Below are positions 8,907 to 27,364 of a stretch of 37,735 bases of DNA, piece by piece (position 1 is the stretch's first letter; each line of letters opens with the position of its first letter). Where the stretch lies: NCBI GenBank assembly GCA_022777285.1, contig JALFGN010000102.1, positions 1-37,735 on the forward strand, read 5' to 3'. The stretch is from Blautia sp. Its GTDB lineage: Bacteria; Bacillota; Clostridia; Lachnospirales; Lachnospiraceae. A model generated the notes under the pieces. The model was not told the origin of the DNA. It saw only the letters and a list, made by a program, of their open reading frames with translations, and made no database searches. The position numbers were made by a program, and so were the translations under genes.

Positions 8907-8924
8907 GCGGGTGTAACAACCCGC
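8907..8924 (+). other. short intercistronic hairpin upstream of the transporter
   Basis: GCGGGT (8907-8912) pairs with ACCCGC (8919-8924) with a six-base loop, followed by TTTGCTT. This is too weak in T content for a strong terminator. It could modulate read-through or mRNA processing between iolI and the symporter gene. Confidence 0.35.
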
Positions 8925-8999
8925 TTTGCTTAAAAGGTGAAAAATATGGCAAAAGGTGGAATTCCTGAATTGCTGAACTTTAAGCAAAAGGGAAAAGAC

Positions 9000-11012: not shown

Positions 11013-11038
11013 AGAAACCGAAAAAAGGAGAGGCAGAA

Positions 11039-11935: not shown

Positions 11936-11976
11936 TCACATGAAAAATGGTGCAGAAGCCGGAAAGGAATTAAATT

Positions 11977-13683: not shown

Positions 13684-13716
13684 GAATCCGGATAAAGAGA
13701 GAAAGAGAGAAAAAAG

Positions 13717-14826
13717 ATGCGTTATATAAAACCACACTATTACGATGCGTTTACCTGCCTTGCGGATCAATGTCCGGAAACCTGCTGTGCAGGCTGGCAG
13801 ATTATGATCGATGAGGATTCTCTGGAAAAGTATGAAAACATTCCAGGACCTTTCGGGAACCGGATTCGTAATTCTATTGACTGGGAAGAGGGATGCTTTT
13901 TTCAATATGGAAAGAGATGCGCCTTTCTCAACGAAGAAGATTTATGTGACTTACAGACAGAGCTGGGAGAGGATTCTCTTTGTGATACCTGCCGCATGTA
14001 TCCCAGACATGTGGAAGAGTACGAGGATTTGAGAGAATACTCACTTTCTCTGTCCTGTCCGGAGGCAGCCAGAATGATTCTCGGATGCAAAGAGAAAGTG
14101 ACTTTTGAAACCTGGGAAACGGAGGAAGAAGATGATTTTGAAGAATTTGATTTTCTTATGTTCACCCAGCTCGAAGATGCAAGAGAAGTCATCTATCAAA
14201 TCCTGCAGAACCGTACCCTGGATCTTCGCGTGAGAATGAAATCCATGCTGGAACTTTCTGATCAAATCCAGACCTGCGTAGAAGAAAACCGCTTTTATGA
14301 TGTTGATAGAATTATCGAGAGATGTAAAGAAAAACCAGAAGGAACAAGGAAAACAAATCTGCAGGATCGCTATGCCTTCATGCATGCAGGATTGGAAATT
14401 CTGGAAAAAATGGAACATCTGAAACCCGGCTGGGAGACTATGCTCAAAAACATAAAAGAGACCTTGTTTGCAAACGGTATCAAAACCTATGAAGCCATCT
14501 ATGAAGGATTCCAGAAAGAGATGGGCTACGATAGCCCCGGAAAAGAAGACTGGGAGATCGAAGGAGAACAATTGCTGCTGTTTTTTGTGTATACCTATTT
14601 CTGCGGAAGCGTGTATGATGACCAGGTATTGACAAAAATGCAGCTTTGTGTGTTTTCTGTTCTCTGGATTCAGGAATTATGGATGTACCACTGGGCAGAA
14701 GAAAAAAGAAAACCGACCTTTTTGGAACGGACGGAACTGGCATGGACATATGCAAGAGAAATCGAACACTCCGATCCGAACCTGGAACTGCTGGAAGAGT
14801 GGTTTTTGCAGGGCACACATGGGTGA
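13717..14826 (+). CDS. fliB: FliB-family (flagellin lysine-N-methylase-like) protein
   Basis: A 369-residue protein starting MRYIKPHYYDAFTCLADQ and then CPETCCAGWQIMIDE, the FliB/YkgJ-like cysteine motif. It continues with CAFLNEEDLCDLQ and LCDTCRMYPRHVEEY and LSCPEAARMIL. This layout is typical of proteins annotated as flagellin lysine-N-methylase in Lachnospiraceae. FliB of Salmonella methylates lysines of flagellin. No flagellar gene is in the window, so the target protein is uncertain. The C-terminal 200 residues are helical with no recognised motif. It forms a likely two-gene unit with the YkgJ protein. GAGAGAAAAAAG precedes the ATG. Confidence 0.82.
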   Translation: MRYIKPHYYDAFTCLADQCPETCCAGWQIMIDEDSLEKYENIPGPFGNRIRNSIDWEEGCFFQYGKRCAFLNEEDLCDLQTELGEDSLCDTCRMYPRHVEEYEDLREYSLSLSCPEAARMILGCKEKVTFETWETEEEDDFEEFDFLMFTQLEDAREVIYQILQNRTLDLRVRMKSMLELSDQIQTCVEENRFYDVDRIIERCKEKPEGTRKTNLQDRYAFMHAGLEILEKMEHLKPGWETMLKNIKETLFANGIKTYEAIYEGFQKEMGYDSPGKEDWEIEGEQLLLFFVYTYFCGSVYDDQVLTKMQLCVFSVLWIQELWMYHWAEEKRKPTFLERTELAWTYAREIEHSDPNLELLEEWFLQGTHG

Positions 14827-15154: not shown

Positions 15155-16105
15155 ATGAGTAGTAAAATTACTATCATTGGGGCTGGGAGTGTAGGCGCGA
15201 CGATCGCTTATACATTATCATGTGAGGATATTGCATCAGAAATCGTGCTGATCGATATTAACAAACAGAAAGTAGAAGGAGAAGTTATGGATATCGCACA
15301 GGGAACTTGTTTCCGTGATCCGATCTCTATTGTTGCAGGGGATTATTCCGATGCAAAGGATTCGGATATTGTGATCATTACATCCGGAATTGCCCGAAAA
15401 CCGGGACAGACACGTATTGAACTGACACAGACCAATGTAAACATTCTGAAAAGTATTACTCCGGACATCGTAAAGGCGGCACCGAATGCGCTTTATATTA
15501 TTGTGAGCAATCCGGTAGATATTATGACTTATGTATTTACGAAGATTTCCGGACTTCCTGAAAATCAGATTATCGGTTCCGGTACGATTCTGGATACTGC
15601 CAGACTGCGCTGCGGACTTTCTGAACATTTTAAAGTTGCGCAGAAGAATATTCACGCTTATGTATTCGGTGAGCATGGAGATACTTCTTTTGTTCCCTGG
15701 TCAGGTGCCTATATTTCCGGTGTCAGCGTAGATGAATATTATAAACTGGCAGACAGTCTTGGAAAAGATGTGAAAGAACTGGATAAAGAAGGAATGCTGA
15801 CTTATGTTCAGAAATCTGGCGGTCAGATCATTGCCAATAAGGGGGCAACTTTTTATGCAGTATCAAAAGCCGTCTGCAAGCTTTGTTCCATTTTGCTGGC
15901 AGCTTCGGATTCCATTGCAACGGTTTCTTCTATGATGCACGGGGAATACGGAATTGAAGATGTGTGTCTGAGCACACTGACTCTGGTAGGCCCGAATGGA
16001 ATTCAGGGAAAAGTTCCCATGCGTATGAACAAAGGAGAAATCGAGCGCCTGAAAGCCAGTGCAGATGCATTAAAGGCTGTAATTGCTCAGATTAACCTTG
16101 ATTAA
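15155..16105 (+). CDS. mdh: LDH-like malate dehydrogenase (Arg at the specificity position)
   Basis: A 316-residue NAD-dependent 2-hydroxyacid dehydrogenase. GAGSVG (9-14) and Asp34 form an NAD site. Catalytic residues are Asp147, His174 (GEHGDTSF) and the carboxylate-binding Arg150. The backbone looks like lactate dehydrogenase (GSGTILDTARLR, GEHGD-x4-WS). However, the active-site loop reads GIARKPGQTR, with Arg81 where LDH has Gln (canonical position 102). Arg there selects oxaloacetate/malate; a Gln-to-Arg change alone converts Bacillus LDH into a malate dehydrogenase. It heads an operon with fumarase and fumarate reductase, which fits malate. AAAGGAG precedes the ATG. Automatic annotation would probably call it L-lactate dehydrogenase. 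Confidence 0.85.
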   Translation: MSSKITIIGAGSVGATIAYTLSCEDIASEIVLIDINKQKVEGEVMDIAQGTCFRDPISIVAGDYSDAKDSDIVIITSGIARKPGQTRIELTQTNVNILKSITPDIVKAAPNALYIIVSNPVDIMTYVFTKISGLPENQIIGSGTILDTARLRCGLSEHFKVAQKNIHAYVFGEHGDTSFVPWSGAYISGVSVDEYYKLADSLGKDVKELDKEGMLTYVQKSGGQIIANKGATFYAVSKAVCKLCSILLAASDSIATVSSMMHGEYGIEDVCLSTLTLVGPNGIQGKVPMRMNKGEIERLKASADALKAVIAQINLD

Positions 16106-16137
16106 GAATGATTTTGAAAGAAAGGATAACAGGAACT

Positions 16138-16947
16138 ATGAAGTACAGTTATTATCCGGGATGTACATTGAGAACAAAGGCAAAAGCCCTGGATGCCTAT
16201 GCCAGAGTTTCTGCAAAAGCCCTGGGATTTGAACTGGAAGAGATAGAAAACTGGCAGTGCTGCGGAGGGGTTTACCCTCTTGGCAGCGATGAAATCGCCA
16301 CAAAACTTTCTTCCGTACGAGCACTGAATGAAGCCAGGGAAAAAGGACAGGATCTGGTAACACTTTGTTCTGCCTGTCATCATGTGATCAAACGGGTCAA
16401 TGATGATATGAAGAACGTAGAAGATATCCGGACAAGGGCCAATCATTACATGCAGCTGGAAGAGCCTTATGCAGGGGAAACCACCGTTCTCCATTTCCTC
16501 GAAGTGCTGCGTGACCGTGTCGGATTTGAACAGTTAAAGGAAAAAGTTGTTCATCCTCTTGTTGGAAAGAAAATCGGAGCCTATTACGGCTGCCTGCTTC
16601 TTCGTCCGGGAAAAATCATGGCATTTGATAATCCGGAAAATCCATCCATTATCGAAGATTTTATCCGTGCCATTGGTGCAGAACCGGTGATTTATCCATA
16701 TAGAAATGAATGCTGCGGCGGATACATATCTCTGAAAGAAAAAGAAATGTCAAGCAATATGTGTCAGAACATTATGGAAAGTGCGAAAGGATTCGGTGCA
16801 GAAATGCTGATCACTGCCTGTCCATTGTGTCTGTATAACCTGAACAAAAGCACCTGTGACGGACTGCCGGTTTATTATTTCACAGAACTTCTGGCAGAAG
16901 CACTTGGCGTAAAGGAAGAAGCAGAAATGGAGGTGGCGAAGCTGTGA
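16138..16947 (+). CDS. hdrB: HdrB-like subunit (CoB-CoM heterodisulfide reductase subunit B family)
   Basis: A 269-residue protein with two complete CCG domains. The first has Cys9, Cys41-Cys42 and Cys77-x2-Cys80 (C-x31-CC-x34-CxxC). The second has YYGC, then ECCGG 39 residues on, and ITACPLC. In methanogen HdrB these bind two noncubane [4Fe-4S] clusters at the disulfide-reducing site. All ligands are kept, so this is probably a working catalytic or electron-exit subunit rather than a relic. The start at 16138 is preferred over 16108 because MKYSYYPGC is the usual opening. It overlaps hdrC by four bases. The natural substrate is unknown, since this lineage lacks CoM/CoB. Confidence 0.92.
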   Translation: MKYSYYPGCTLRTKAKALDAYARVSAKALGFELEEIENWQCCGGVYPLGSDEIATKLSSVRALNEAREKGQDLVTLCSACHHVIKRVNDDMKNVEDIRTRANHYMQLEEPYAGETTVLHFLEVLRDRVGFEQLKEKVVHPLVGKKIGAYYGCLLLRPGKIMAFDNPENPSIIEDFIRAIGAEPVIYPYRNECCGGYISLKEKEMSSNMCQNIMESAKGFGAEMLITACPLCLYNLNKSTCDGLPVYYFTELLAEALGVKEEAEMEVAKL

Positions 16948-17333
16948 AGGATCAGAAAAAGCAGGCAGAATTAATCAAAGAAATCAGCGGAGTCAATCCT
17001 CTGAAATGTATGAAATGCGGAAAATGTTCTGCTACGTGCCCTTCTTATAATGAAATGGATATTAAACCGCATCAGTTTGTATCTTATGTTGTGAACGAAG
17101 ATATTGAATCCCTGGTAAATTCCAAATCTCTCTGGAAATGTCTTTCCTGTTTTGCCTGTGTAGAGCGCTGCCCAAGAGATGTAAAACCAGGAAAACTCAT
17201 TGATGCTGCAAGACAGCTTGTGGTAAGGCAGAAGGGGCAGACCTATCTGTCTCCGGATGAGATTCCGGAATTGCTGGATCCGGAACTTCCACAGCAGTTA
17301 TTAGTCAGTGCATTCAGAAGATATAGGAGGTAA
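16944..17333 (+). CDS. hdrC: HdrC-like iron-sulfur subunit
   Basis: A 129-residue ferredoxin-like protein starting with GTG (overlap GTGA with hdrB) after GGAGGTGG. Two [4Fe-4S] motifs are visible: Cys22, 25, 28, 32 (CMKCGKCSATCP) and Cys66, 69, 72, 76 (CLSCFACVERCP). The length and spacing match HdrC, which wires HdrA to HdrB. The KPGKLIDAARQLV segment after the second cluster is typical. Five bases separate it from hdrA. Confidence 0.93.
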   Translation: MKDQKKQAELIKEISGVNPLKCMKCGKCSATCPSYNEMDIKPHQFVSYVVNEDIESLVNSKSLWKCLSCFACVERCPRDVKPGKLIDAARQLVVRQKGQTYLSPDEIPELLDPELPQQLLVSAFRRYRR

Positions 17334-17338
17334 GCCTG

Positions 17339-19327
17339 GTGCAGAGAGTAGGAGTATTTGTCTGCCATTGCGGAAGCAACATTGCCGCTACGGTAGATGT
17401 AAAGAAAGTAGCAGAGATGGCTCTTATGGAGCCGGGCGTTGTCCATGCGGAAGATTACCAGTATATGTGTTCTGAGGCAGGACAGGCCAAAATCGCAGAA
17501 GCGATCAAAGAAAAACAGCTGACGGGAATCGTGGTATGTTCCTGTTCCCCGCGTATGCATGAAACCACCTTCAGAAAAGCAGCAGAAAGAGCCGGACTGA
17601 ATCCTTATATGGTGGAAATTGCAAATATTCGTGAGCACTGTTCCTGGATTCATAAAGATATGGAAGAGGCAACGAAAAAGGCAGTCATTCTCATGCGTGC
17701 AGCCGTAGCGAAAGTAAACTTAAATACGCCGCTTCAGCCGGGAGAAAGCCGTGTAACAAAACGTGCACTGATCATCGGCGGAGGAATTGCAGGAATTCAG
17801 ACTGCGCTTGATATTGCAGATGCAGGATATGAGGTAGATATTGTAGAGAAAACACCAAGTATCGGAGGAAGAATGTCACAGCTTGATAAGACCTTTCCGA
17901 CACTGGACTGTTCTGCCTGTATCCTGACACCAAAAATGGTAGAAGCAGCAGCACATGAAAAAATTAAGATTTATACCTATAGTGAAGTAGAAAAAGTTTC
18001 CGGTTTCGTAGGAGACTTTACGGTAGATATCCGCAAAAAAGCCAGAAGTGTAGATATGGATAAATGTACAGGCTGTGGTGTCTGTCAGGAAAAATGTCCT
18101 TCCAAAAAAGCACCCAGTGAATTCAACCGGGGACTGAACACCAGAAGTGCGATCTACACCCCATTTGCGCAGGCAATCCCAAATGTTCCTGTGATTGACC
18201 GGGAAAACTGTATCAAATTTAAAACAGGAAAATGTGGTGTCTGTGCAAAAGTCTGTCAGGCAGGTGCTATTGATTATGAGCAGAAAGATGAGATCATCAC
18301 AGAAAAATACGGAGCAATTGTGGTTGCTACGGGATTTGATGTGATCAAACTGGATAACTATGATGAATATGCTTACAGCCAGAGCAAAGATGTCATCACA
18401 TCTCTGGAACTGGAACGTATTATGAATGCGGCAGGTCCTACAAAAGGCCATCTGGAACGGCTTTCTGACGGAAAAGCACCAAAAGAAATGGTATTTATCC
18501 AGTGTGTGGGAAGCCGTTGTGCCGATGACAGAGGAAAGAGTTATTGTTCAAAAATCTGCTGTATGTACACGGCAAAACATGCCATGCTGATCCGAGACAA
18601 GTATCCGGATGTAAATGTGACAGTATTTTATATTGATGTACGTACACCTGGAAAGAATTTTGATGAATTCTACCGAAGAGCAGTGGAACAGTACGGTGTG
18701 CACTATATCAAAGGTCAGGTGGGAAAAGTCATTCCTCAGCCAAACGGAAAATTACTGGTACAGGGATCCGATCTGTTGGACAACCGGCAGATTCTCAAAG
18801 AGGCAGATATGGTAGTTCTGGCCGCTGCCATTGAACCAAATCCGGATGTACGTAAGATTGCAACCATGCTGACAGCAAGTATTGATACGAATAACTTCCT
18901 GACAGAAGCACATGCAAAGCTGCGTCCGGTAGAATCTCCGACAGCAGGTATTTTCCTGTCCGGTGTGTGCCAGGGACCGAAAGACATTCCGGAAACAGTA
19001 GCTCAGGCAGGAGCAGCAGCAGTCAAAGCCATTGGACTTCTTGCAAAAGACAAACTGATGACCAATCCATGTACTGCAAAACCGGATGAACTTCTCTGCA
19101 ATGGATGTTCCACTTGTGCAAATGTGTGTCCGTATGGTGCGATTACCTATGAAGAAAAAGAAGTCAATGATCATGGTATCCGGGAAACCCGCCGTCTTGC
19201 CATGGTAAACAGTGCACTGTGTCAGGGATGTGGTGCATGTACCGTAGCCTGCCCGTCCGGAGCCATGGATCTGCAGGGATTCTCTAACAGACAGATTATA
19301 GCGGAGGTAGATGCAATATGTCGATAG
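17339..19327 (+). CDS. hdrA: HdrA-like flavoprotein, predicted electron-bifurcating subunit
   Basis: A 662-residue protein with GTG start, eight bases after AGGAGG. It has the full HdrA domain order. There is an N-terminal domain with VCHCG and CSCSPRMHETTFR (residues 1-140). A thioredoxin-reductase-like FAD domain opens at GGGIAGIQTALDIA (from residue 147), with PTLDCSACILTPKM. An inserted ferredoxin begins at Cys243 (CTGCGVCQEKCP and CGVCAKVC). There is a second FAD half (GVCQGPKDIPETVAQAGAAA) and a C-terminal two-cluster ferredoxin from Cys587 (CNGCSTCANVCP and CQGCGACTVACP). HdrA is the site of flavin-based electron bifurcation, sending one electron to ferredoxin and one towards HdrBC. 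Its stop overlaps the next gene by 10 bases. Confidence 0.93.
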   Translation: MQRVGVFVCHCGSNIAATVDVKKVAEMALMEPGVVHAEDYQYMCSEAGQAKIAEAIKEKQLTGIVVCSCSPRMHETTFRKAAERAGLNPYMVEIANIREHCSWIHKDMEEATKKAVILMRAAVAKVNLNTPLQPGESRVTKRALIIGGGIAGIQTALDIADAGYEVDIVEKTPSIGGRMSQLDKTFPTLDCSACILTPKMVEAAAHEKIKIYTYSEVEKVSGFVGDFTVDIRKKARSVDMDKCTGCGVCQEKCPSKKAPSEFNRGLNTRSAIYTPFAQAIPNVPVIDRENCIKFKTGKCGVCAKVCQAGAIDYEQKDEIITEKYGAIVVATGFDVIKLDNYDEYAYSQSKDVITSLELERIMNAAGPTKGHLERLSDGKAPKEMVFIQCVGSRCADDRGKSYCSKICCMYTAKHAMLIRDKYPDVNVTVFYIDVRTPGKNFDEFYRRAVEQYGVHYIKGQVGKVIPQPNGKLLVQGSDLLDNRQILKEADMVVLAAAIEPNPDVRKIATMLTASIDTNNFLTEAHAKLRPVESPTAGIFLSGVCQGPKDIPETVAQAGAAAVKAIGLLAKDKLMTNPCTAKPDELLCNGCSTCANVCPYGAITYEEKEVNDHGIRETRRLAMVNSALCQGCGACTVACPSGAMDLQGFSNRQIIAEVDAICR

Positions 19328-19761
19328 AATCAAAAGAAGAATTCAGACCGAAAATCGTGGCTTTCTGCTGTAACTGGTGCAGTTATGCAGGAGCCGACCT
19401 TGCAGGAAGCAGCCGTCTGGCATATCCTGCAGATGTAAAAATTATCCGTGTTCCCTGCTCCTGTCGTGTCAATCCCATGTTTATCCTTCGTGCATTTGAA
19501 AAAGGGGCTGATGGCGTGATTTTGTGCGGCTGTCATCCGGGAGACTGTCACTACAGTACAGGAAACTACTATGCAAGAAGACGTATGACATTACTGTTCT
19601 CCATGCTGGATTACATCGGTGTGGAAAACGGACGTACCCGTGTCGAATGGGTATCAGCAGCGGAAGGTGTGAAATTCTCCACTACCATGAACGAATTCGT
19701 GGAGAAAATTCATTCCCTTGGAAAAAATGTGAGATTGGGGGATTTAAGATGCAGGAAATAA
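19318..19761 (+). CDS. mvhD: MvhD/FlxD-type [2Fe-2S] electron-transfer protein
   Basis: A 147-residue protein of the methyl-viologen hydrogenase delta (MvhD/FlxD) family: FCCNWCSYAGADLAGSSRLAY, IRVPCSCRVNPMFILRAFEKG, and LCGCHPGDCHYSTGNYYA carry the conserved cysteines. It docks on HdrA and passes electrons from an input module, which is a hydrogenase in methanogens and an NADH-oxidising FlxA in bacteria. No hydrogenase is nearby, but FlxA/B-like genes follow. It overlaps hdrA by 10 bases and the next gene by 13, so tight translational coupling is likely. Confidence 0.92.
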   Translation: MSIESKEEFRPKIVAFCCNWCSYAGADLAGSSRLAYPADVKIIRVPCSCRVNPMFILRAFEKGADGVILCGCHPGDCHYSTGNYYARRRMTLLFSMLDYIGVENGRTRVEWVSAAEGVKFSTTMNEFVEKIHSLGKNVRLGDLRCRK

Positions 19762-20723
19762 TCAACCGTGCAAAAGAACTGCTGGCGAACAAAACCGTTG
19801 CCCGGGTGCTTGGCTGGAAAGCCGGAGACCTGCCTTACAATCCGGAACCTGCGTATTTTGAGACAGAAGAATCTTTGAAGGATTTTGTGTATAACGGTTT
19901 TTGCGGAGCAAACTTGAGCAAATATATGATCGAAGCTTCCAAGATGGAAGGAAAAACCATGGTTTGCCTCAAACCATGTGATACATACAGTTTTAACCAG
20001 CTCATCAAAGAACACCGGGTAGACCGGGAGAAAGCGTATATTGTCGGTGTAGGCTGCAAAGGAAAACTGGATATTGAGAAGATCAGAAAACAGGGAATCA
20101 AAGGCATTCAGAGCATAAAAGGAGCAGAGCTGACCGATGACGCAGAGGTTCTGAACATGGAAACCCTGTATGGAGAAAAAATCTGTGACTGGAAAGATGC
20201 CATGCTGGAAAGATGCCACGTGTGCAAAGGAAAAGAACATCAGATTTACGACGAATTAATCGGAGAATCCAAAGATACCAAAGATGCAGACCGTTTTGAT
20301 GAAGTAAAACGAATCGAAGCCATGAGTCCGGAAGAAAAATTTGCATTTTTCCAGAAGGAATTAAGCAAATGTATCCGCTGTAATGCATGCAGAAATGTCT
20401 GTCCTGCATGCAGCTGTCGCAAATGTGTGTTTGACAGTAACAAATTCGACAGTTCACAGAAAGCAAATGCAGATTCCTTTGAAGAGAAAATGTTCCATAT
20501 TATCCGTGCCTTCCATGTGGCAGGCAGATGTACCGACTGCGGAGAATGCAGCCGTGTATGTCCACAGGGAATCCCGCTGCATTTGTTCAACAGAAAATTT
20601 ATCAAAGATATTGATGAATTATACGGGGAATATCAGGCAGGCGCAGATACCACCTCTCTGGCACCGCTGACCAGTTATACCTTTGAGGATGCGGAACCGG
20701 GAATCGTGGGAGAAAGGGGATAA
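19749..20723 (+). CDS. iron-sulfur protein of the Hdr/Flx cluster (FlxC-like position)
   Basis: A 324-residue protein; start at 19749 is preceded by TTGGGGGATTTAAG and overlaps the mvhD gene. The first 180 residues resemble the N-terminal part of FrhB-like electron carriers (KTMVCLKPCDTYSFNQLIKE, YIVGVGCKGKLDIEK), with ERCHVCKGKEH. The C-terminal half has two [4Fe-4S] motifs, CIRCNACRNVCPACSCRKC and CTDCGECSRVCP, the first with extra cysteines. It has no membrane segment. It occupies the place of an intermediate electron carrier between the NAD(P)H-oxidising module and HdrA. I do not recognise a specific named family with certainty. Confidence 0.75.
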   Translation: MQEIINRAKELLANKTVARVLGWKAGDLPYNPEPAYFETEESLKDFVYNGFCGANLSKYMIEASKMEGKTMVCLKPCDTYSFNQLIKEHRVDREKAYIVGVGCKGKLDIEKIRKQGIKGIQSIKGAELTDDAEVLNMETLYGEKICDWKDAMLERCHVCKGKEHQIYDELIGESKDTKDADRFDEVKRIEAMSPEEKFAFFQKELSKCIRCNACRNVCPACSCRKCVFDSNKFDSSQKANADSFEEKMFHIIRAFHVAGRCTDCGECSRVCPQGIPLHLFNRKFIKDIDELYGEYQAGADTTSLAPLTSYTFEDAEPGIVGERG

Positions 20724-20726
20724 TGT

Positions 20727-21767
20727 ATGTATAAGATAAGCAAAGAAAATCTGAAGGCATTATTCCGTCTGATTGCTGCAGAACAGGAATTATATGTGCC
20801 GGTAAAAACAGCAGATCAGGTGAATTTTGCAGCATGGAGCGAAGAAGCAGAAACGGATCTCGATACACTGAAAACAGTCAAATCTCCGAAAGATGCATTC
20901 TTTCCACAGAGCGAAAATCTGTATACGGTGAAAAAAGAAGGCAAAAAACTTCAGGTAGAACCGGGAGAAAGGAAAAATCAGGATTTTGTAATCTTTGGAA
21001 TGAAAGCCTGTGATGTTCAGGCAGTTCAAGTTCTGGACAATGTATTTCTTGCAGAGCCGGTCGACACTTACTATGCAGCAAGAAGAGAACATGGAACTAT
21101 CGTTTCGCTTGCCTGTCATGAACCGGAGGAATCCTGTTTCTGTAAGGTGTTTGGTATTGACTGTGCAGAACCGGCAGCAGATGTGGCAGTCTGGATGGTG
21201 GGCGAAGAACTGTACTGGAAAGCGCTGACAGAAAAGGGAGAAGCACTTACAAAGACAGTGGAAAGTCTTCTGGCTCCCGCTGATCAGGCAGACGAAGAAA
21301 GCGTAGAAGCAGAAAAGACTGCCATCCGTGGAATCGTGGAAAAACTGCCTTATTCCAATCTGTCTTTAGAAGGATGGAACAAAGAGTCTTTAACAGAAAA
21401 ATTCGATTCTCCTTTGTGGGAGGAATTGTATCAGCCATGTCTGGCATGTGGTACCTGTACCTTTGTCTGCCCGACCTGTCAGTGTTATGACATTAAGGAT
21501 TATGACACGGGAAATGGAGTTGTCCGTTATCGCTGCTGGGATTCCTGTATGTATTCCGACTTTACCATGATGGCACATGGCAATAACCGTACCAGTCAGA
21601 TGCAGAGATTTCGTCAGAGATTTATGCACAAGCTGGTTTATTATCCGGCAAACAACAATGGCATGTATTCCTGTGTGGGCTGCGGACGCTGCGTAGAAAA
21701 ATGTCCGGCTTCTTTAAATATTGTAAAAGTAATCAAAAAGTTTCAGAACCAGGGAGGTGAAAACTGA
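20727..21767 (+). CDS. 4Fe-4S dicluster electron-transfer protein (AsrA/FlxB-like)
   Basis: A 346-residue soluble protein like the A subunit of anaerobic sulfite reductase and the beta subunit of sulfhydrogenase. The N-terminus YKISKENLKALFRLIAAEQELYVPV is typical, followed by FVIFGMKACDVQAVQVLD and a cysteine-rich EESCFCKVFGIDC. Two C-terminal cluster motifs, CLACGTCTFVCPTCQC and CVGCGRCVEKCP, bind [4Fe-4S]. It works with the FAD/NAD(P) subunit encoded immediately downstream (TGATG overlap). It should relay electrons from NAD(P)H into the Hdr part of the complex. No sirohaem sulfite reductase subunit (AsrC) is present, so sulfite reduction is unlikely. Confidence 0.85.
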   Translation: MYKISKENLKALFRLIAAEQELYVPVKTADQVNFAAWSEEAETDLDTLKTVKSPKDAFFPQSENLYTVKKEGKKLQVEPGERKNQDFVIFGMKACDVQAVQVLDNVFLAEPVDTYYAARREHGTIVSLACHEPEESCFCKVFGIDCAEPAADVAVWMVGEELYWKALTEKGEALTKTVESLLAPADQADEESVEAEKTAIRGIVEKLPYSNLSLEGWNKESLTEKFDSPLWEELYQPCLACGTCTFVCPTCQCYDIKDYDTGNGVVRYRCWDSCMYSDFTMMAHGNNRTSQMQRFRQRFMHKLVYYPANNNGMYSCVGCGRCVEKCPASLNIVKVIKKFQNQGGEN

Positions 21768-22621
21768 TGAGTGAATGCACCTGTCATAAAAATTATACGT
21801 TAGATACCTTGATCCCGCAGGTTGGAGTTATTACCGATATCCGTCAGGAAACACCGGACGTAAAGACATTCCGTGTCAATGCACCGGAAGGCGGAAAACT
21901 GTTTGAGCATATGCCCGGACAGTGCGCTATGGTTTGTGCACCCGGCATCAGTGAAGGGATGTTTTCCATCACCTCTTCTCCGACGAATAAAGAATATCAG
22001 GAATTCAGCATTAAGAAATGCGGAATCCTCACAGATTATCTCCACAGTCTTCAGGTGGGGGATGAGATTACAGTAAGAGGACCTTACGGAAATCATTTCC
22101 CGGTGGAAACCGAACTGAAGGGAAAAAATCTCCTGTTTATTGCAGGTGGAATCGGTCTGGCACCGCTGCGTTCCGTGATCAATTATGTGCTGGATAACAG
22201 AGAAAATTATGGGACTGTGGATATCCTTTATGGTTCCCGTTCTGCAGATGATCTGGTACAGCTGAAAGAAATTCAGGAAGTATGGATGAAAACAGAAGGA
22301 GTCAATGTATACCTGACCATTGACCGGGAACAGGAAGGATGGGACGGTCATGTGGGATTTGTTCCTTCATATCTGAAAGAAATCGGATTTGACACAGACA
22401 AGGTGGCGCTGGTGTGCGGACCTCCGATCATGATCAAATTTGTACTGGCAGGACTTCAGGAGATCGGATTTACCAAAGATCAGGTTTATACCACACTGGA
22501 ACTGCGTATGAAATGTGGCGTTGGAAAATGCGGCCGCTGCAACATCGGATCCAAATATGTGTGCAAAGATGGTCCTGTTTTCCGTTGTGACGAAATCGAT
22601 GAACTGCCTCAGGAATTCTAA
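21767..22621 (+). CDS. FAD/NAD(P)-binding oxidoreductase subunit (AsrB/FlxA-like)
   Basis: A 284-residue ferredoxin-reductase-type protein. FAD is bound by the segment MFSITSSPT (near 65-75) and NAD(P) by LLFIAGGIGLAPLRS. The C-terminus has a [2Fe-2S] cysteine set, Cys250, 255, 258 and 266 (KCGVGKCGRCNIGSKYVC), as in AsrB, HydG and dihydroorotate dehydrogenase electron subunits. LVCGPPIMIKF is the nucleotide-binding GP motif. It is the only subunit of the operon likely to exchange electrons with NADH or NADPH. The gene starts within the preceding stop. Which nucleotide is used cannot be read with confidence. Confidence 0.88.
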   Translation: MSECTCHKNYTLDTLIPQVGVITDIRQETPDVKTFRVNAPEGGKLFEHMPGQCAMVCAPGISEGMFSITSSPTNKEYQEFSIKKCGILTDYLHSLQVGDEITVRGPYGNHFPVETELKGKNLLFIAGGIGLAPLRSVINYVLDNRENYGTVDILYGSRSADDLVQLKEIQEVWMKTEGVNVYLTIDREQEGWDGHVGFVPSYLKEIGFDTDKVALVCGPPIMIKFVLAGLQEIGFTKDQVYTTLELRMKCGVGKCGRCNIGSKYVCKDGPVFRCDEIDELPQEF

Positions 22622-22654
22622 TAGAATCAAATAACCGAAAGGACGGATACAGAA

Positions 22655-23329
22655 ATGGAAAATATGGTAAATGTGTATTTTTTTGGTAAGAAATACAGTG
22701 TACCTGCAGAGCTGACGATTATGACTGCAATGGAATATGCCGGCTATACGCTGAAAAGAGGCTGCGGCTGCCGTCATGGTTTCTGTGGTGCCTGTGCAAC
22801 AATTTACAGAATCAAAGGAAAAAATGAATTAAAAACCTGTCTGGCCTGTCAGACACAGGTAGAAGAGGGCATGTATGTAGCAAGCATTCCTTTCTTCCCT
22901 ACAGATAAAAGAACTTATGATATCAAGGAACTCAGACCGAATCAGCAGGTGATGATGGAACTTTATCCGGAAATCTACAGCTGTATCGGCTGTAATGCCT
23001 GTACAAAAGCCTGTACACAGGATCTGAATGTTATGCAGTATATTGCATATGCCCAGAGAGGGGAACTGGAGAAATGTGCAGAAGAATCCTTCGACTGTGT
23101 AGGCTGCGGCTGCTGTTCCGTTCGATGTCCTGCAGGCATTTCTCATCCGATGGTAGGTCTTCTGGCAAGACGTCTTACCGGAAAATATATTGCGCCGGAA
23201 GCAAAACATCTCACAAACAGAGTGGAAGAGATTAACAGAGGTGAGTACGACGAGCTGATCGAACAGATCATGCAGAAACCAATCACAGAAATGCAGGAAC
23301 TTTACAATAACAGAGAGATTGAGAAATAG
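22655..23329 (+). CDS. frdB: fumarate reductase iron-sulfur subunit, soluble type
   Basis: A 224-residue subunit. The N-terminal domain binds a [2Fe-2S] cluster through CGCRHGFCGAC and KTCLAC. The C-terminal domain has CIGCNACTKAC and CVGCGCCSVRC, two motifs with four cysteines each, suggesting two [4Fe-4S] clusters. Membrane enzymes have three clusters including a [3Fe-4S] that meets quinone; here the fourth cysteine is kept, which fits a quinone-independent enzyme. No FrdC/FrdD anchor gene is present. It should carry electrons from the Hdr/Flx proteins to FrdA. AAAGGA lies before the ATG, 33 bases after the previous gene. Confidence 0.83.
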   Translation: MENMVNVYFFGKKYSVPAELTIMTAMEYAGYTLKRGCGCRHGFCGACATIYRIKGKNELKTCLACQTQVEEGMYVASIPFFPTDKRTYDIKELRPNQQVMMELYPEIYSCIGCNACTKACTQDLNVMQYIAYAQRGELEKCAEESFDCVGCGCCSVRCPAGISHPMVGLLARRLTGKYIAPEAKHLTNRVEEINRGEYDELIEQIMQKPITEMQELYNNREIEK

Positions 23330-23342
23330 GAGGGCGTGAAAC

Positions 23343-24953
23343 ATGTATGCACCATATCCGGAAAACATGATGGAATCTATCAAAAAGGTAGAAGCTACAA
23401 GAGCAGAACGTATGGCAACTGAGCCGAAACGTCTGACAGCAGAGGAAAAAGACGCTCTTTTGAAAAAATTCCATCCGGACTATAACCCAGATGCGTTTGC
23501 TGAGATTAAAGTGGGACCAAACAAAGGGCAGAAAGCCCCGCTTGAACTGGCAGAAATGCTTCATTCAACAAGCCGTCTGATGGGGGAAAAGATTGATCTT
23601 ACAAAAATAGATTATGATGTAGATGTACTTGTAATCGGCGGCGGCGGAGCGGGTTCTTCCTGTGCCATTGAAGCGCACAATGCCGGTGCCAATGTCATGA
23701 TCGTTACAAAACTTCGTATTGGTGATGCCAATACCATGATGGCAGAAGGCGGAATTCAGGCAGCAGATAAGGAAAATGATTCACCGGTACAGCACTATCT
23801 GGACTGTTTCGGAGGCGGACACTTTGCTGCAAAACCGGAGCTTGTAAAGCGACTGGTAATGGAAGCACCGGATGCGATCAAATGGCTCAATGAACTCGGT
23901 GTTGAGTTTGATAAAGAAGAAGACGGAAGAATGGTAACGACACATGGCGGTGGTACTTCCAGAAAGAGAATGCATGCTGCAAAAGATTACTCAGGTGCAG
24001 AAATCATGCGTACCATAAGAGATGAAGTGCTGAATCTTGGTATTCCGGTCGTTGAATTTACTTCAGCTGTTGAATTACTGAAAGATGAGAAAGGCCAGGT
24101 TGCCGGTGCTGTGCTTCTCAATATGGAAACCGGAGATTATTCCGTTGCAAGAGCAAAAACTGTAGTCATTGCGACAGGTGGAGCAGGAAGAATGCATTAT
24201 CAGGGATTCCCGACATCGAACCATTACGGTGCAACTGCAGATGGACTGGTATTGGGATATCGGGCAGGTGCTTCTCTTCTTTATCAGGATTCCATCCAGT
24301 ATCATCCAACAGGCGCAATCTACCCATCTCAGATTCTTGGCGCACTGGTAACCGAAAAAGTACGTTCTGTTGGTGCACAGCTTGTAAATGCAAACGGAGA
24401 AGCTTATATTCACCCACTGGAAACCCGTGATGTAAATGCTTCCGGTGTCATCCGTGAATGCAGAGAAGGCCGCGGCGTAGAAGTACCAGGTGGTGCACAG
24501 GGAGTATGGCTGGATACTCCGATGATTGAGATTCTTGGTGGAGAAGGCACCATCGAAAAGAGAATTCCGGCTATGTTCCGTATGTACATGAACTATGGGA
24601 TTGATATGAGAAAGGTTCCAATCCTGATCTATCCGACCCTTCACTATCAGAACGGTGGTCTTGAGATCGATGGCGATGGATTTACAAAAGAAATCCCGAA
24701 CCTTTTAGTTGCAGGAGAAGCTGCAGGTGGAATCCATGGAAGAAACAGACTGATGGGAAATTCCCTTCTGGATGTGATCGTGTTTGGCAGAAACGCCGGT
24801 AAAAAAGCGGCTGCAAAATGCAAGTCAGTTGAACTTGGGGAAATGAACCTCAACCACATCAATACCTATGCAGAAGAACTGAAGGCTGCAGGTGTAGAGA
24901 CAAACAATGTTTCTCCATTGCTGCTTCCAAATTATGCCCGTCATGAAAGATAG
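23343..24953 (+). CDS. frdA: fumarate reductase/succinate dehydrogenase-type flavoprotein subunit
   Basis: A 536-residue flavoprotein. Residues 1 to about 90 are an extra N-terminal region (KRLTAEEKDALLKKFHPDYN) not found in classic FrdA. The FAD motif GGGGAG starts at residue 99. Active-site residues are kept: His321 (YHPTG), Arg341 (TEKVRSVG), His434 (LHYQNGG) and the Arg in GRNRLMGNSLLD. The residue that carries covalent FAD in FrdA (His in SHT) is Asn130 here (ANTMMAEGGIQ), so FAD is probably non-covalent, as in L-aspartate oxidase and soluble fumarate reductases. It would reduce fumarate to succinate in the cytosol. Aspartate oxidase activity is less likely because no nadA/nadC accompany it. 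Confidence 0.87.
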   Translation: MYAPYPENMMESIKKVEATRAERMATEPKRLTAEEKDALLKKFHPDYNPDAFAEIKVGPNKGQKAPLELAEMLHSTSRLMGEKIDLTKIDYDVDVLVIGGGGAGSSCAIEAHNAGANVMIVTKLRIGDANTMMAEGGIQAADKENDSPVQHYLDCFGGGHFAAKPELVKRLVMEAPDAIKWLNELGVEFDKEEDGRMVTTHGGGTSRKRMHAAKDYSGAEIMRTIRDEVLNLGIPVVEFTSAVELLKDEKGQVAGAVLLNMETGDYSVARAKTVVIATGGAGRMHYQGFPTSNHYGATADGLVLGYRAGASLLYQDSIQYHPTGAIYPSQILGALVTEKVRSVGAQLVNANGEAYIHPLETRDVNASGVIRECREGRGVEVPGGAQGVWLDTPMIEILGGEGTIEKRIPAMFRMYMNYGIDMRKVPILIYPTLHYQNGGLEIDGDGFTKEIPNLLVAGEAAGGIHGRNRLMGNSLLDVIVFGRNAGKKAAAKCKSVELGEMNLNHINTYAEELKAAGVETNNVSPLLLPNYARHER

Positions 24954-24967
24954 GAGAGTGAAACGTC

Positions 24968-25810
24968 ATGCGTGAGATTCAGGTAAGCCAGCTGACAGAT
25001 GTGATCGAGAGACTTTGTATCGAAGCCAATGAACATCTGCCGGAAGATGTGAAATGTGCAATTCGTAACTGTCGTGCCTGCGAAGACGGTGAGATTGCCA
25101 AAGGAGTATTGGATAATATTATTGAAAATTTTGAAATTGCAGATAAGGAATGTGTGCCGATCTGTCAGGATACCGGTATGGCCTGTGTATTTCTGGAAAT
25201 CGGACAGGATGTGCATCTGACAGGAGGAAATCTGACCGATGCAGTCAACGAAGGTGTCCGCAGAGGATATGACAAGGGATATCTCAGAAAATCTGTTGTA
25301 AAGGATCCGGTGCGTCGTGGAAATACCGGGGATAATACGCCTGCCATGATCTACACAGAGATCGTTCCTGGAGAACAGATTAAGGTGACACTGGGACCAA
25401 AAGGATTCGGAAGTGAGAATATGAGTGCCATTCGTATGTTCAAACCTTCCGCAGGACTGCAGGGAATCAAAGATTTCATTCTGGAGACTGTGGAAACAGC
25501 AGGACCGAATCCCTGCCCGCCTATGGTAGTCGGTGTTGGAATCGGAGGAACGTTTGATAAGGCTGCACTCCTTGCAAAGAAAGCCCTGATGCGTCCGCTG
25601 GATTCTTCCAATCCGGATCCGTTCTATGCAGAACTGGAAACAGAGATGCTGGACAAAATCAATCAACTGGGAATCGGACCACAGGGATTTGGCGGAAAAA
25701 CAACCGCAATCGGTCTGAACATTGAAACAATGCCGACACACATTGCAGGTATGCCATGTGCCATCAACATCAACTGCCACGTGACACGCCACAAAACGGA
25801 GGTAATCTGA
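24968..25810 (+). CDS. fumA: class I fumarate hydratase, alpha subunit
   Basis: A 280-residue alpha subunit of the two-subunit, oxygen-sensitive [4Fe-4S] fumarase. Cluster cysteines are Cys66 (VPICQDTG), Cys183 (NPCPPMVVGVGIGG) and Cys264 (GMPCAININC). KGFGSENMSAIRMFKPSAG is the usual substrate loop. It interconverts malate and fumarate together with the beta subunit downstream. The related L-tartrate dehydratase looks alike at this level, but malate dehydrogenase and fumarate reductase in the same operon strongly favour fumarase. AGGAGAGTGAAAC precedes the ATG. Confidence 0.92.
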   Translation: MREIQVSQLTDVIERLCIEANEHLPEDVKCAIRNCRACEDGEIAKGVLDNIIENFEIADKECVPICQDTGMACVFLEIGQDVHLTGGNLTDAVNEGVRRGYDKGYLRKSVVKDPVRRGNTGDNTPAMIYTEIVPGEQIKVTLGPKGFGSENMSAIRMFKPSAGLQGIKDFILETVETAGPNPCPPMVVGVGIGGTFDKAALLAKKALMRPLDSSNPDPFYAELETEMLDKINQLGIGPQGFGGKTTAIGLNIETMPTHIAGMPCAININCHVTRHKTEVI

Positions 25811-25811
25811 T

Positions 25812-26381
25812 ATGGAAAAGAAGATAACATTGCCTCTTACAGAGGAGCTGGCAAAAACACTTCATGCAGGAGACCGGGTACTTCTCACAGGAACCATTTA
25901 CACATCCAGGGATGCAGGACATAAGCGGATGTGTGAAGCCCTTGCAAAAGGAGAAGCGATTCCGTTTGATCCGACCGATGCCACCATTTATTATGTAGGT
26001 CCGACACCTGCAAAACCGGGACAGGTGATTGGTTCCGCAGGTCCGACTACCAGTGGCCGTATGGATGCGTATGCACCGACTATGATGTCTGTAGGAGCAC
26101 GAGGAATGATTGGAAAAGGTGCACGTCTTCCGGAAGTAGTAGAAGCTATGAAAAAATATCATGGCGTTTACTTTGGTGCCATTGGAGGTGCCGGTGCACT
26201 TCTGGCAAAATGTATCAAAAAGGCGGAATTGATTGCGTACGAAGACTTGGGTGCAGAAGCACTGAGAAAATTGTATGTGGAAGACATGCCTCTGGTTGTC
26301 ATTATTGACAGCGAAGGAAAGAACCTTTATGATGAGGGAAGAGCTGCCTATCTTGCGCAGCATAACACAGAAGAGGAGTAA
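25812..26381 (+). CDS. fumB: class I fumarate hydratase, beta subunit
   Basis: A 189-residue beta subunit. Motifs are GDRVLLTGTIYTSRDAGHKR, YYVGPTPAKPGQVIGSAGPT, TTSGRMDAYAP, IGKGA and GVYFGAIGGAGALL. The beta subunit completes the active site with Arg, Thr and Lys residues from these strings. It starts one base after the alpha stop, so equal synthesis is likely. With it, the operon covers the full route from oxaloacetate to succinate. Confidence 0.93.
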   Translation: MEKKITLPLTEELAKTLHAGDRVLLTGTIYTSRDAGHKRMCEALAKGEAIPFDPTDATIYYVGPTPAKPGQVIGSAGPTTSGRMDAYAPTMMSVGARGMIGKGARLPEVVEAMKKYHGVYFGAIGGAGALLAKCIKKAELIAYEDLGAEALRKLYVEDMPLVVIIDSEGKNLYDEGRAAYLAQHNTEEE

Positions 26382-26387: not shown

Positions 26388-26711
26388 ATGGAAATGGAAA
26401 CAATCTGCAATCTGCTTGAGGCTCTGATGATCCTCTGCTTTGGACTGTCATGGCCGATTTCAATCCGGAAATCCTGGATTTCCAGAACTGCAAAAGGAAA
26501 AAGTTTGTTTTTTGAAGTATTTATCTGGATCGGTTATGTGTTCGGTATCATGAACAAGTTTATCCAGTACGGACAGAATCCGGAAAGAGGATGGATTTTC
26601 TTCCTTGCATGGGCCTTCTATTTCCTGAATATTACAGAGATTACCATTGATATGGTACTGTATTTCAGAAATGTGAAGCTGGATAAAGAGCGGGAAAAAG
26701 AAAAGAAATAA
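26388..26711 (+). CDS. small three-helix membrane protein, PQ-loop/SemiSWEET-like
   Basis: A 107-residue protein with three hydrophobic helices (about residues 8-24, 42-58 and 68-90) and a charged C-terminal tail. FGLSWPISIRKSWISRTAKGKS followed by a GYVFGI helix resembles one half of a PQ-loop transporter, with WP where PQ is usual. SemiSWEETs have the same size and helix number. It starts six bases after the fumarase beta stop and precedes the operon terminator, so it is co-transcribed. A dicarboxylate or small-solute transport role is possible but not shown. The family name is uncertain. Confidence 0.6.
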   Translation: MEMETICNLLEALMILCFGLSWPISIRKSWISRTAKGKSLFFEVFIWIGYVFGIMNKFIQYGQNPERGWIFFLAWAFYFLNITEITIDMVLYFRNVKLDKEREKEKK

Positions 26712-26718
26712 AAAGTAC

Positions 26719-26762
26719 GAAAGAGAGAAAATTCTTACAAAAAGGATTTCTCTCTTTTTCTT
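26719..26762 (+). terminator. intrinsic terminator of the fumarate operon
   Basis: AAAGAGAGAAA (26720-26730) pairs with TTTCTCTCTTT (26747-26757), followed by TTCTTTT. It closes the transcript running from mdh. Confidence 0.82.
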
Positions 26763-26809
26763 TTGTAAGATATATGTTAGAATTAAAAAAATTGGAAAGA
26801 GGAAACGAC

Positions 26810-27364
26810 ATGTCTGATAATATTTTTTTGAAAGAAAACAAAAAACAGATGTTTCTGGAAGAATATATGAATTACAATGTAGGAGGCAGAGAAAATCTGG
26901 GAAGTCAGCTGCCGGTTGCTGTATACAGACTGATGGAGTACTCACTGAAAGAAGAGCTGACAGAACGATTTGGGACAGAAGAACAGATTCGGATTTTCCG
27001 GGATGCAGGATATCGTGCCGGCGTTTATTTTGCAAAACATTTTCTGGATACCAGTCTGGAGCAAAATGTATTTCTTGCTTCTTTACAGAGCAAGATGGAA
27101 GAATTGAAAATTGGTGTCTTGCGGATGGAATATTTTGACGAAGAAGCCGGTAAAATCGTATTGACGGTATCCGAAGATGCAGATTGTTCCGGACTTCCTT
27201 TATTGGGAGAGACAGTCTGCAATTATGATGAAGGATTTCTGGCGGGTATCTTATCTTCCTATTTTAAGAAAGACTATGTTGTGGTGGAAACAGACTGTTG
27301 GGCTACAGGAGACCGGGTCTGCAGATTTTGTGCCAGACAACAATCGGACGGGAGCGAGCAATGA
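26810..27364 (+). CDS. V4R-domain sensor protein
   Basis: A 184-residue protein; start 26810 follows GAGGAAACGAC, and the longer frame from 26774 lacks a binding site. The C-terminal two thirds fit the V4R (4-vinyl reductase) small-ligand domain: LPVAVYRLMEYSLKEEL, FRDAGYRAGVYFAKHFL, YDEGFLAGILSSYF, and the ending VVETDCWATGDRVCRFCAR, where two cysteines near the end are typical. V4R domains bind small aromatic or hydrophobic ligands or metals and feed regulators. The stop overlaps the start of the diguanylate cyclase gene (ATGA), so the two products are probably made together and may interact. Confidence 0.8.
   Translation: MSDNIFLKENKKQMFLEEYMNYNVGGRENLGSQLPVAVYRLMEYSLKEELTERFGTEEQIRIFRDAGYRAGVYFAKHFLDTSLEQNVFLASLQSKMEELKIGVLRMEYFDEEAGKIVLTVSEDADCSGLPLLGETVCNYDEGFLAGILSSYFKKDYVVVETDCWATGDRVCRFCARQQSDGSEQ

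What the first reader, a model, noticed from the sequence alone, without database searches (positions are those of the whole stretch)
15155..26381. Putative soluble, electron-bifurcating fumarate reductase: HdrABC-MvhD-Flx-like proteins with FrdAB in one operon
The sequence shows HdrB, HdrC, HdrA, MvhD/FlxD, two iron-sulfur proteins, an FAD/NAD(P) subunit, FrdB and FrdA in a row with overlaps of 1-13 bases or short gaps. Known HdrA complexes bifurcate electrons between ferredoxin and a disulfide acceptor, and FlxABCD-HdrABC of Desulfovibrio uses NADH. Methanogen thiol:fumarate reductase links an Hdr-like module to FrdA/B. My inference is a complex oxidising NAD(P)H and reducing both ferredoxin and fumarate, saving energy without membranes. 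I know of no described enzyme with this exact composition.
Basis: partly seen in the sequence, partly recalled or inferred. Interest (0 to 1): 0.93.

Follow-up and report, generated by a model that had tools for sequence, protein, structure and literature searches.

The report
Bifurcating fumarate reductase operon, gut bacteria
A gut-type bacterium carries one operon for making succinate whose fumarate reductase genes sit, gene by gene, beside those of a soluble enzyme of the kind that splits electrons, so making succinate may also save energy; the idea has been proposed for another bacterium, and we found no report that the enzyme was purified and tested.

Summary
The window holds a tight 12-gene operon: malate (or lactate) dehydrogenase, HdrB-C-A, FlxD-C-B-A, FrdB-like, FrdA, fumarase alpha and beta. 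The motif cysteines, the HdrA bifurcation signature and the fumarate site are conserved in relatives. Of 109 loci fetched from relatives and class, 85 hold all nine genes hdrBCA-flxDCBA-frdBA (the other 24 are cut short); 84 keep the order, one is rearranged but still linked. In 391 class genomes FrdA and this HdrA co-occur in 53, each alone in one. Likeliest function: a soluble NADH-driven fumarate reductase that also reduces ferredoxin. The idea is not new: an operon of like composition was proposed as such in Pseudoclostridium thermosuccinogenes (PMC7282089). New here: its spread through gut Lachnospiraceae and Oscillospiraceae, including a strain labelled Blautia luti, a species whose 2026 energy model uses a plain NADH-dependent enzyme; and signs that the same FrdBA core takes other donors elsewhere in the phylum (11 of 18 loci there have no Hdr or Flx gene beside it), while one HdrB type follows FrdBA whatever HdrA it sits with. 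No biochemistry seen shows bifurcation; two genomes keep FrdBA without any HdrA.

The parts
15155..16105 (+). mdh: malate (or lactate) dehydrogenase
   Evidence: Ldh_1_N/C. NCBIfam L-lactate dehydrogenase models are over cut-off (340.9 of 339; 332 of 303.55) and a malate dehydrogenase model just under (278.4 of 283); but the specificity loop reads ARKPGQTR, Arg where LDH has Gln102 (rule recalled), hence malate preferred
16108..16947 (+). hdrB: two CCG motifs for two noncubane [4Fe-4S] clusters
   Evidence: CCG; PDB HdrB 8rvv 119.7 bits; ten motif Cys in 86 of 86 sequences, window included
16944..17333 (+). hdrC: two [4Fe-4S], short type (129 aa)
   Evidence: eight Cys in 86 of 86
17339..19327 (+). 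hdrA: FAD subunit with bifurcation signature, inserted and C-terminal ferredoxin domains
   Evidence: HdrA2 799.6 bits, cut-off 1100 (model includes the MvhD part); 5odc 694 bits; E359 and K413 in 86 of 86
19318..19761 (+). flxD / mvhD [2Fe-2S]
   Evidence: FlpD 184 bits
19749..20723 (+). flxC: FdhB-like iron-sulfur protein
   Evidence: 7bkb_E (formate dehydrogenase beta, Hdr complex) 78.5 bits; start read
20727..21767 (+). flxB: AsrA / sulfhydrogenase-beta-like iron-sulfur protein
21767..22621 (+). flxA: FAD/NAD(P)H subunit (AsrB / sulfhydrogenase-gamma-like)
   Evidence: NAD_binding_1, FAD_binding_6, DHODB_Fe-S
22655..23329 (+). frdB-like: N-terminal [2Fe-2S] and two CxxCxxCxxxC [4Fe-4S] motifs, no HdrB domain
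   Evidence: weak SDHB match 28.9 bits
23343..24953 (+). frdA: fumarate reductase flavoprotein with 90-residue N-terminal extension; Asn at the covalent-FAD His position
   Evidence: FAD_binding_2 225.8 bits; model pTM 0.86, best PDB folds E. coli FrdA
24968..25810 (+). fumA: fumarase alpha
   Evidence: NF004885 419.4 bits, cut-off 276
25812..26381 (+). fumB: fumarase beta
   Evidence: NF005310 287.7 bits, cut-off 238

Best explanation
The operon encodes a soluble, NADH-driven, electron-bifurcating fumarate reductase together with enzymes that feed it fumarate (a probable malate dehydrogenase, and fumarase). Proposed path: NAD(P)H gives a hydride to FlxA; electrons pass FlxB, FlxC and FlxD to the FAD of HdrA; HdrA sends one electron downhill through HdrC and the HdrB clusters to FrdB, FrdA and fumarate, and one uphill to ferredoxin; two rounds give 2 NADH + fumarate + 2 Fdox -> 2 NAD+ + succinate + 2 Fdred. 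Ferredoxin is then spent by Rnf. Shown here: gene content, cluster motifs, bifurcation signature, fumarate-site residues, conserved linkage, co-occurrence, HdrB type tracking FrdBA, rnfC and PEP carboxykinase in the same genome. Inferred: one physical complex, NADH rather than NADPH, ferredoxin reduction, direction toward succinate.
For: Linkage: 84 of 85 complete loci in one order, the other (L180) rearranged yet contiguous; L221 and L222 also have frdBA before hdrBCA-flxDCB, with flxA cut by the locus end. Co-occurrence: 10 of 61 relatives have FrdA and exactly those 10 have full HdrA; in 391 class genomes both 53, FrdA only 1 (75% complete), window-type HdrA only 1 (62% complete), neither 336, three with a different HdrA counted there (not corrected for kinship, and partly the effect of one operon). 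HdrA E359/K413 align with E356/K409, the residues used to tell bifurcating HdrA (PMC9430772, PMC12054007, passages): 86 of 86. Inserted ferredoxin domain: all eight Cys 86 of 86. HdrB of 25 FrdBA-associated loci is split at 100/100 support from six stand-alone HdrB, including two loci with only hdrC-hdrB-frdB-frdA. Fumarate-site residues H321, T337, E338, R362, H434, R469 invariant in 36 rows; H434 and R469 109 of 110 in the larger set. Energetics: -49 or -33 kJ/mol with ferredoxin at -420 or -500 mV (fumarate and NADH potentials recalled). Own genome: rnfC over cut-off twice, PEPCK, no MenD over cut-off.
Against: No biochemistry of ferredoxin coupling was seen for this or any related organism. 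Two genomes (G814, G513) keep FrdBA and have no HdrA match, so the core can work without it; of 18 phylum-level core loci, 11 have no adjacent Hdr or Flx gene. HdrB keeps a complete disulfide-type site, so a thiol step is not excluded. FrdB misses every curated FrdB/TfrB cut-off and its structure model is poor (pTM 0.46). The Hdr-type methylene-THF reductase of Sporomusa carries the signature in one of two HdrA flavins and showed no co-reduction of ferredoxin or NAD(P) with H2 as donor (PMC9430772, passages). No fusion joining FrdB to Hdr was seen (FrdB 221-244 aa in 103 relatives). rnfC was not found in 2 of the 10 FrdA-bearing relatives, one of them 77% complete. The first gene passes lactate dehydrogenase cut-offs.
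Confidence: 0.68

Rival explanations
1. Two-step thiol route: Flx-Hdr bifurcates to ferredoxin and to a protein or small-molecule disulfide at HdrB, and FrdBA then uses the dithiol, as in thiol:fumarate reductase, without a single complex.
For: HdrB keeps all ten cysteines of both noncubane clusters, 86 of 86; PMC7282089 speaks of Flx-Hdr giving electrons to ferredoxin and thiols (passage).
Against: FrdB has no thiol-oxidising HdrB domain of its own, so a second HdrBC would be needed and only one is in the operon; HdrB type follows FrdBA, also where HdrA is absent from the locus.
Confidence: 0.13
2. NADH:fumarate reductase without energy coupling: the Flx-Hdr-Frd chain passes electrons straight to fumarate and ferredoxin is not reduced, or FrdBA takes electrons from NADH by another route.
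For: Trischler and Mueller 2026 model an NADH-dependent fumarate reductase in B. luti (PMC12773636, section 18); FrdBA exists without HdrA in G814 and G513.
Against: Bifurcation signature and inserted ferredoxin domain of HdrA invariant in 86 sequences; a nine-gene machine conserved in order would be costly if only NADH oxidation were needed (inference).
Confidence: 0.14
3. Reverse use: the enzyme oxidises succinate with reduced ferredoxin or NAD+ (confurcation).
For: Such systems are reversible in principle (recalled); the distant locus L214 has an ATP-grasp/CoA-ligase gene next to frdA.
Against: Asn at the covalent-FAD His position in 110 of 110, a state that in E. coli FrdA favours fumarate reduction (recalled); operon with fumarase and a probable mdh; B. 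luti excretes succinate (PMC12773636, passages).
Confidence: 0.05

Closest known systems
Proposed electron-bifurcating fumarate reductase / 'succinate operon' of Pseudoclostridium thermosuccinogenes (PMC7282089, passages; preprint 10.20944/preprints201912.0288.v1 not held, seen only as a citation)
   Same: Fumarase, Flx-Hdr genes (seven by locus tags), two fumarate reductase genes in one operon; same proposed NADH to ferredoxin plus fumarate reaction
   Different: Thermophile; one fumarase locus tag and no mdh named in the operon; adjacent putative transporter; its sequences were not compared here
FlxABCD-HdrABC NADH dehydrogenase/heterodisulfide reductase (Ramos 2015, citation only)
   Same: All seven subunits and cofactor motifs
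   Different: HdrC short and HdrB of a separate type tied to FrdBA; the six stand-alone Flx-Hdr loci seen here have hdrC-hdrB-hdrA order and 188-212-residue HdrC
Thiol:fumarate reductase TfrAB of methanogens (recalled, and NCBIfam models)
   Same: FrdA-like flavoprotein as best curated match; FrdB and HdrB chemistry side by side
   Different: TfrB holds FrdB and HdrB parts in one chain; here separate, and joined to HdrA-Flx; TfrA 332.8 of 718 bits
Clusters with korABCD, tfrAB and flxABCD-hdrABC in tubeworm symbionts and Thioflavicoccus (PMC6315080, passages)
   Same: Flx-Hdr interspersed with a fumarate reductase; a complex was suggested
   Different: rTCA cluster with 2-oxoglutarate oxidoreductase; proteobacterial
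HdrABC-MvhD methylene-THF reductase of Moorella and Sporomusa (PMC9430772, passages)
   Same: Hdr module plugged onto a reductase that does not act on disulfides
   Different: HdrA there lacks the inserted ferredoxin domain; membrane-linked in Sporomusa

Membership tests
FlxABCD-HdrABC | All seven subunits in one cluster | tested here: met
FlxABCD-HdrABC | HdrA with bifurcation residues (E356/K409) and inserted ferredoxin domain | tested here: met
   E359, K413 86 of 86; Cys 243-253 and 291-306 86 of 86
FlxABCD-HdrABC | NADH oxidation coupled to ferredoxin and a disulfide | not testable with these tools
   needs enzyme
Bifurcating fumarate reductase operon (P. thermosuccinogenes proposal) | Fumarase + Flx-Hdr genes + two frd genes together | tested here: met
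   window gene content against the description in PMC7282089
Bifurcating fumarate reductase operon (P. thermosuccinogenes proposal) | Sequence orthology to that operon | not tested
   its record was not identified among the loci fetched
Thiol:fumarate reductase TfrAB | TfrA and TfrB curated models | tested here: not met
   FrdA 332.8 of 718; FrdB 30.9 of 385 bits
Thiol:fumarate reductase TfrAB | FrdB-HdrB fusion in TfrB (recalled) | tested here: not met
   FrdB 221-244 aa in the 103 relatives kept
Quinol:fumarate reductase / complex II | Covalent-FAD His, C-terminal flavoprotein domain, membrane anchor in the operon (recalled) | tested here: not met
   Asn130 110 of 110; FAD_binding_2 but no C-terminal SDH flavoprotein domain matched; no anchor among the 12 genes
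Complex II flavoprotein fold | Fumarate-site residues and fold | tested here: met
Complex II iron-sulfur subunit (dhsB) | TIGR00384 cut-off 88 bits | tested here: not met
   22.9 bits
Complex II iron-sulfur subunit (dhsB) | SdhB fold | tested here: inconclusive
   SdhB at rank 2, E 7e-4, TM 0.29, on a model of pTM 0.46
L-aspartate oxidase | NadB models | tested here: not met
   TIGR00551 252.2 of 452.75, NF005867 259.4 of 639 bits; the other NadB models listed there are also under cut-off

The most novel reading that the evidence does not exclude
FrdBA of this family is a modular terminal fumarate reductase whose electron supply has been exchanged during evolution: HdrBC-HdrA-Flx for NADH-driven bifurcation in gut Clostridia, HdrBC alone, HdrA-GltD giants, cytochrome b561-ferredoxin, or NapC/multihaem and FMN-binding proteins elsewhere. 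HdrBC of a FrdBA-specific type is the socket. In gut Lachnospiraceae such as Blautia, succinate formation is then itself an energy-conserving step, adding about 0.23 ATP per glucose through Rnf at the published yield of 0.42 succinate per glucose, which the 2026 Blautia luti model leaves out.
Probability: 0.55. Interest if true: 0.75.

Novelty: new member of a known kind. Interest (0 to 1): 0.56.

Why it matters
If true, a way for many gut Firmicutes to make succinate also yields reduced ferredoxin without a membrane or quinone, changing the energy budget of human-gut genera. The 2026 Blautia luti study measured fumarate reductase in crude extract with methyl viologen, found frdAB highly transcribed and modelled an NADH-dependent enzyme (PMC12773636); words beginning with Hdr or heterodisulfide do not occur in its main text (its supplements were not seen). 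In a strain labelled Blautia luti (MSK.16.34, L045) frdBA follows hdrBCA-flxDCBA directly. The question can be tested in a culturable acetogen. The donor swaps also offer natural comparisons for how an Hdr module docks on a reductase that does not act on disulfides.

Tried and rejected
Docking of the FrdA N-terminal extension to Hdr: the 90-residue extension is predicted folded but also occurs in FrdA of loci without Hdr (profile positions from 2 or 3 to 531 matched in G525, G479, G520, G816; L216-L219), so it is not an Hdr dock. Fusions as proof of a complex: HdrB-HdrC reads as one frame in L048 and L068 and FlxB-FlxA in L051, but these are metagenome assemblies and single indels could do it; not used. 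FrdB fold: inconclusive. Taking the first ORF as a lactate dehydrogenase, as NCBIfam does over cut-off: set aside on the ARKPG loop and the operon, not disproved. Correlation with Rnf or ATP-type PEPCK: not specific (rnfC 51 of 61, PEPCK 28 of 61 relatives; 8 of 10 and 4 of 10 FrdA-bearing genomes). HdrA tree as evidence that HdrA tracks FrdBA: it does not separate FrdBA-linked from stand-alone HdrA cleanly; HdrB does, though the roots are midpoints for drawing and holding the six stand-alone HdrB together as a clade of their own was neither found nor rejected (p-AU 0.488). Papers reporting such an enzyme purified: none noticed in the listings of searches or in the passages opened; the library lacks most subscription journals, bioRxiv and the cited preprint. 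Most of the papers in those listings were not opened (for instance PMC10920352).

Dropped rows: one search left out hits covering under 80% of the query (and mdh hits under 50% identity); searches used hand-chosen representatives (36, 41, 32 rows), and HdrB reading frames over 300 residues from the second, third and fourth fetched sets were trimmed to their last 300. The 20 class-level and 20 phylum-level loci were chosen by me from 54 and 41 matching genomes, partly for divergence. In one search three of 57 genomes with an HdrA match were set aside as another HdrA type. Loci are not independent of each other.


Full report
What is there. The window (contig C44 of a 2.72 Mb draft genome) carries on the + strand twelve genes with gaps of at most 33 bases: malate (or lactate) dehydrogenase, hdrB, hdrC, hdrA, flxD, flxC, flxB, flxA, frdB-like, frdA, fumarase alpha and beta. 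With PEP carboxykinase, which the genome also has, this gives the reductive route from phosphoenolpyruvate over oxaloacetate, malate and fumarate to succinate. The first gene passes lactate dehydrogenase cut-offs; I read it as malate dehydrogenase from the ARKPG loop (rule recalled).

Electron-input arm. FlxC is related to the FdhB subunit found in solved Hdr-formate dehydrogenase complexes, FlxB to sulfhydrogenase beta and AsrA, FlxA to the FAD/NAD(P)H subunits of the same enzymes. HdrA aligns over its whole length with a solved HdrA (5odc, 694 bits) and keeps the glutamate and lysine that the literature uses to mark a bifurcating flavin (E359 and K413 here; rule from passages of PMC9430772 and PMC12054007), in 86 of 86 sequences, window included. 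The inserted ferredoxin domain, said to be missing from HdrA of the Sporomusa methylene-THF reductase (PMC9430772), is present.

Output arm. HdrB keeps both noncubane cluster motifs, 86 of 86. FrdB-like has a [2Fe-2S] motif and two CxxCxxCxxxC motifs; in 104 sequences the eight cysteines of the latter are invariant and those around the first are at 0.91-1.0. It is far from SdhB (28.9 bits) and reaches no curated cut-off. FrdA reaches none either (TfrA 332.8 of 718 bits), yet its model folds well (pLDDT 82, pTM 0.86) and is nearest to E. coli fumarate reductase FrdA. Aligned with E. coli SdhA (which residues are catalytic is recalled) the substrate-site residues are H321, T337, E338, R362, H434, R469, all invariant in the 36-row alignment; in the 110-row set H434 and R469 are kept in 109, R362 was not counted. 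The residue at the covalent-FAD histidine is Asn in 110 of 110.

Conservation. FrdA orthologues (68-91% identity) occur in 9 of 60 relatives besides the window's genome, and full HdrA in exactly the same ones. In 391 genomes drawn from the class 54 have FrdA; 57 have an HdrA match, of which 54 are of the window type (my judgement by score and identity; the other 3 are 44-48% identical); 53 have both (Fisher 2e-63, not corrected for kinship and partly a consequence of sharing one operon). Of 89 loci in the first set (9 from relatives, 80 named) 66 hold all nine genes, all in order on one strand; the 23 others have at most 6.0 kb before frdA, less than the 7.0-8.2 kb the block spans. In a second set of 20, 19 hold all nine, 18 in order; L180 has fumAB-frdBA-hdrBCA-flxDCBA; one is cut. 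mdh lies within 3.5 kb upstream in 17 of 24 loci with room, fumA within 3 kb downstream in 68 of 91: within the class the two flanks vary, the nine genes do not.

Beyond the class. In 398 genomes across the phylum 41 matched FrdA, two of them other proteins at about 300 bits. I fetched 20 loci: 18 of this family and those two. Of the 18, three have hdrABC-flxDCBA beside frdBA (L220, L221, L222; flxA cut by the locus end in the last two), two have HdrA and GltD-like giants (L224, L232), two only hdrC-hdrB-frdB-frdA (L228, L230), and 11 have none of these. Among the 11, L216 has a ferredoxin-cytochrome b561 protein directly behind frdA by Pfam and L217 and L218 homologous ORFs by clustering; L219 and L227 have NapC-type cytochromes, L214 an FMN-binding ferredoxin protein; L229 and L231 sit with fumarase (malic enzyme by Pfam in L229, and by clustering in L231) while hdrBCA-flxDCBA lies elsewhere in the genome; L223 and L233 come from genomes with no HdrA match; L215 is a second FrdA copy without frdB. 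So the core can be served by other donors, which weakens any claim of an obligate tie and suggests a modular design. That these neighbours are the donors is inference from position.

HdrBC as the socket. Three trees were built. FrdA groups largely by donor, with L223 and L233 inside the Flx-Hdr group as apparent losses (L233 is a long branch). HdrA does not separate FrdBA-linked from stand-alone systems cleanly. HdrB does: the 25 HdrB associated with FrdBA (linked, HdrCB-only, GltD type, or in trans) lie on one side of a 100/100 branch, and the six stand-alone ones plus a second HdrB of L232 on the other; the HdrC frames are 126-156 against 188-212 residues. G490 and G692 each hold both kinds. 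'Stand-alone' and 'in trans' were assigned by me from gene neighbourhood. This is the best sequence evidence that electrons leave Hdr through HdrBC into FrdB.

Mechanism and energetics. With largely recalled standard potentials, 2 NADH + fumarate + 2 Fdox is exergonic by 49 or 33 kJ/mol with ferredoxin at -420 or -500 mV. The window's genome has two rnfC genes (other Rnf subunits were not searched), so ferredoxin could be re-oxidised with ion pumping. MenD is absent above cut-off (the futalosine route to menaquinone was not tested), so a quinol-linked enzyme is less likely. Direction toward succinate is inferred from the operon.

Known or new. The reading is already in print as a proposal for Pseudoclostridium thermosuccinogenes (PMC7282089, passages), where the operon rose about four-fold at low CO2, not significantly for all subunits, and a 2019 preprint is cited for the idea (not held). 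A Flx-Hdr/fumarate reductase complex was also suggested for tubeworm symbionts (PMC6315080, passages). I noticed no paper with the purified enzyme (searches named under Tried and rejected). For Blautia luti DSM 14534, Trischler and Mueller report succinate at 0.42 per glucose, fumarate reductase activity of 499 mU/mg with reduced methyl viologen, high frdAB transcript and a model with an NADH-dependent enzyme (PMC12773636: abstract, passages, sections 4 and 18). The strain with the operon here is a different one bearing that species label (MSK.16.34); whether DSM 14534 has the same neighbourhood was not checked. If it does and the enzyme bifurcates, 0.42 x 2/3.6 = 0.23 ATP per glucose should be added to the published 3.05-3.15.

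Verdict. Organism: Lachnospiraceae by its nearest named relatives; the genus is not established.

Noticed in passing
L244 (HdrA start 8721), L246 (start 8110), L245: In three stand-alone Flx-Hdr clusters HdrA has an in-frame TGA exactly at the Cys194 position of the LDCSACI motif, likely selenocysteine; no SECIS or tRNA search was made.
   Followed up: partly
L215 (G536), match 6369-7973: A second FrdA copy (56% identical) without frdB, next to an AtuA-domain protein; function unknown.
   Followed up: no
window 13003-14826: Two FliB-type lysine methylase-like ORFs directly upstream of the operon, one full length (316.6 bits, cut-off 85), one with a weak partial match (26.8 bits); no flagellar gene was recognised among the window proteins scanned (not every ORF).
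   Followed up: no
window 26388-28602: Downstream of fumB: an uncharacterised 107-aa ORF without Pfam match and with homologues near the same place in a number of relatives, then a V4R/MsvR-like protein and a GGDEF protein; possible regulators.
   Followed up: no
L059 (Sporofaciens musculi), frdA: The reading of frdA in this genome shows stops and a 30-residue piece in another frame, perhaps sequencing indels.
   Followed up: no
L048, L068 (hdrB-hdrC) and L051 (flxB-flxA): Neighbouring subunits read as one frame in single assemblies: fusion or indel error.
   Followed up: no
L228 (G490): hdrC-hdrB-frdB-frdA with fumarase and a DctM C4-dicarboxylate transporter nearby: looks like a fumarate-uptake and reduction unit without HdrA in the locus.
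   Followed up: partly
window 6983-12897: An inositol catabolism cluster (iolG-like, symporter, iolE and a sugar-isomerase-like protein) upstream.
   Followed up: no
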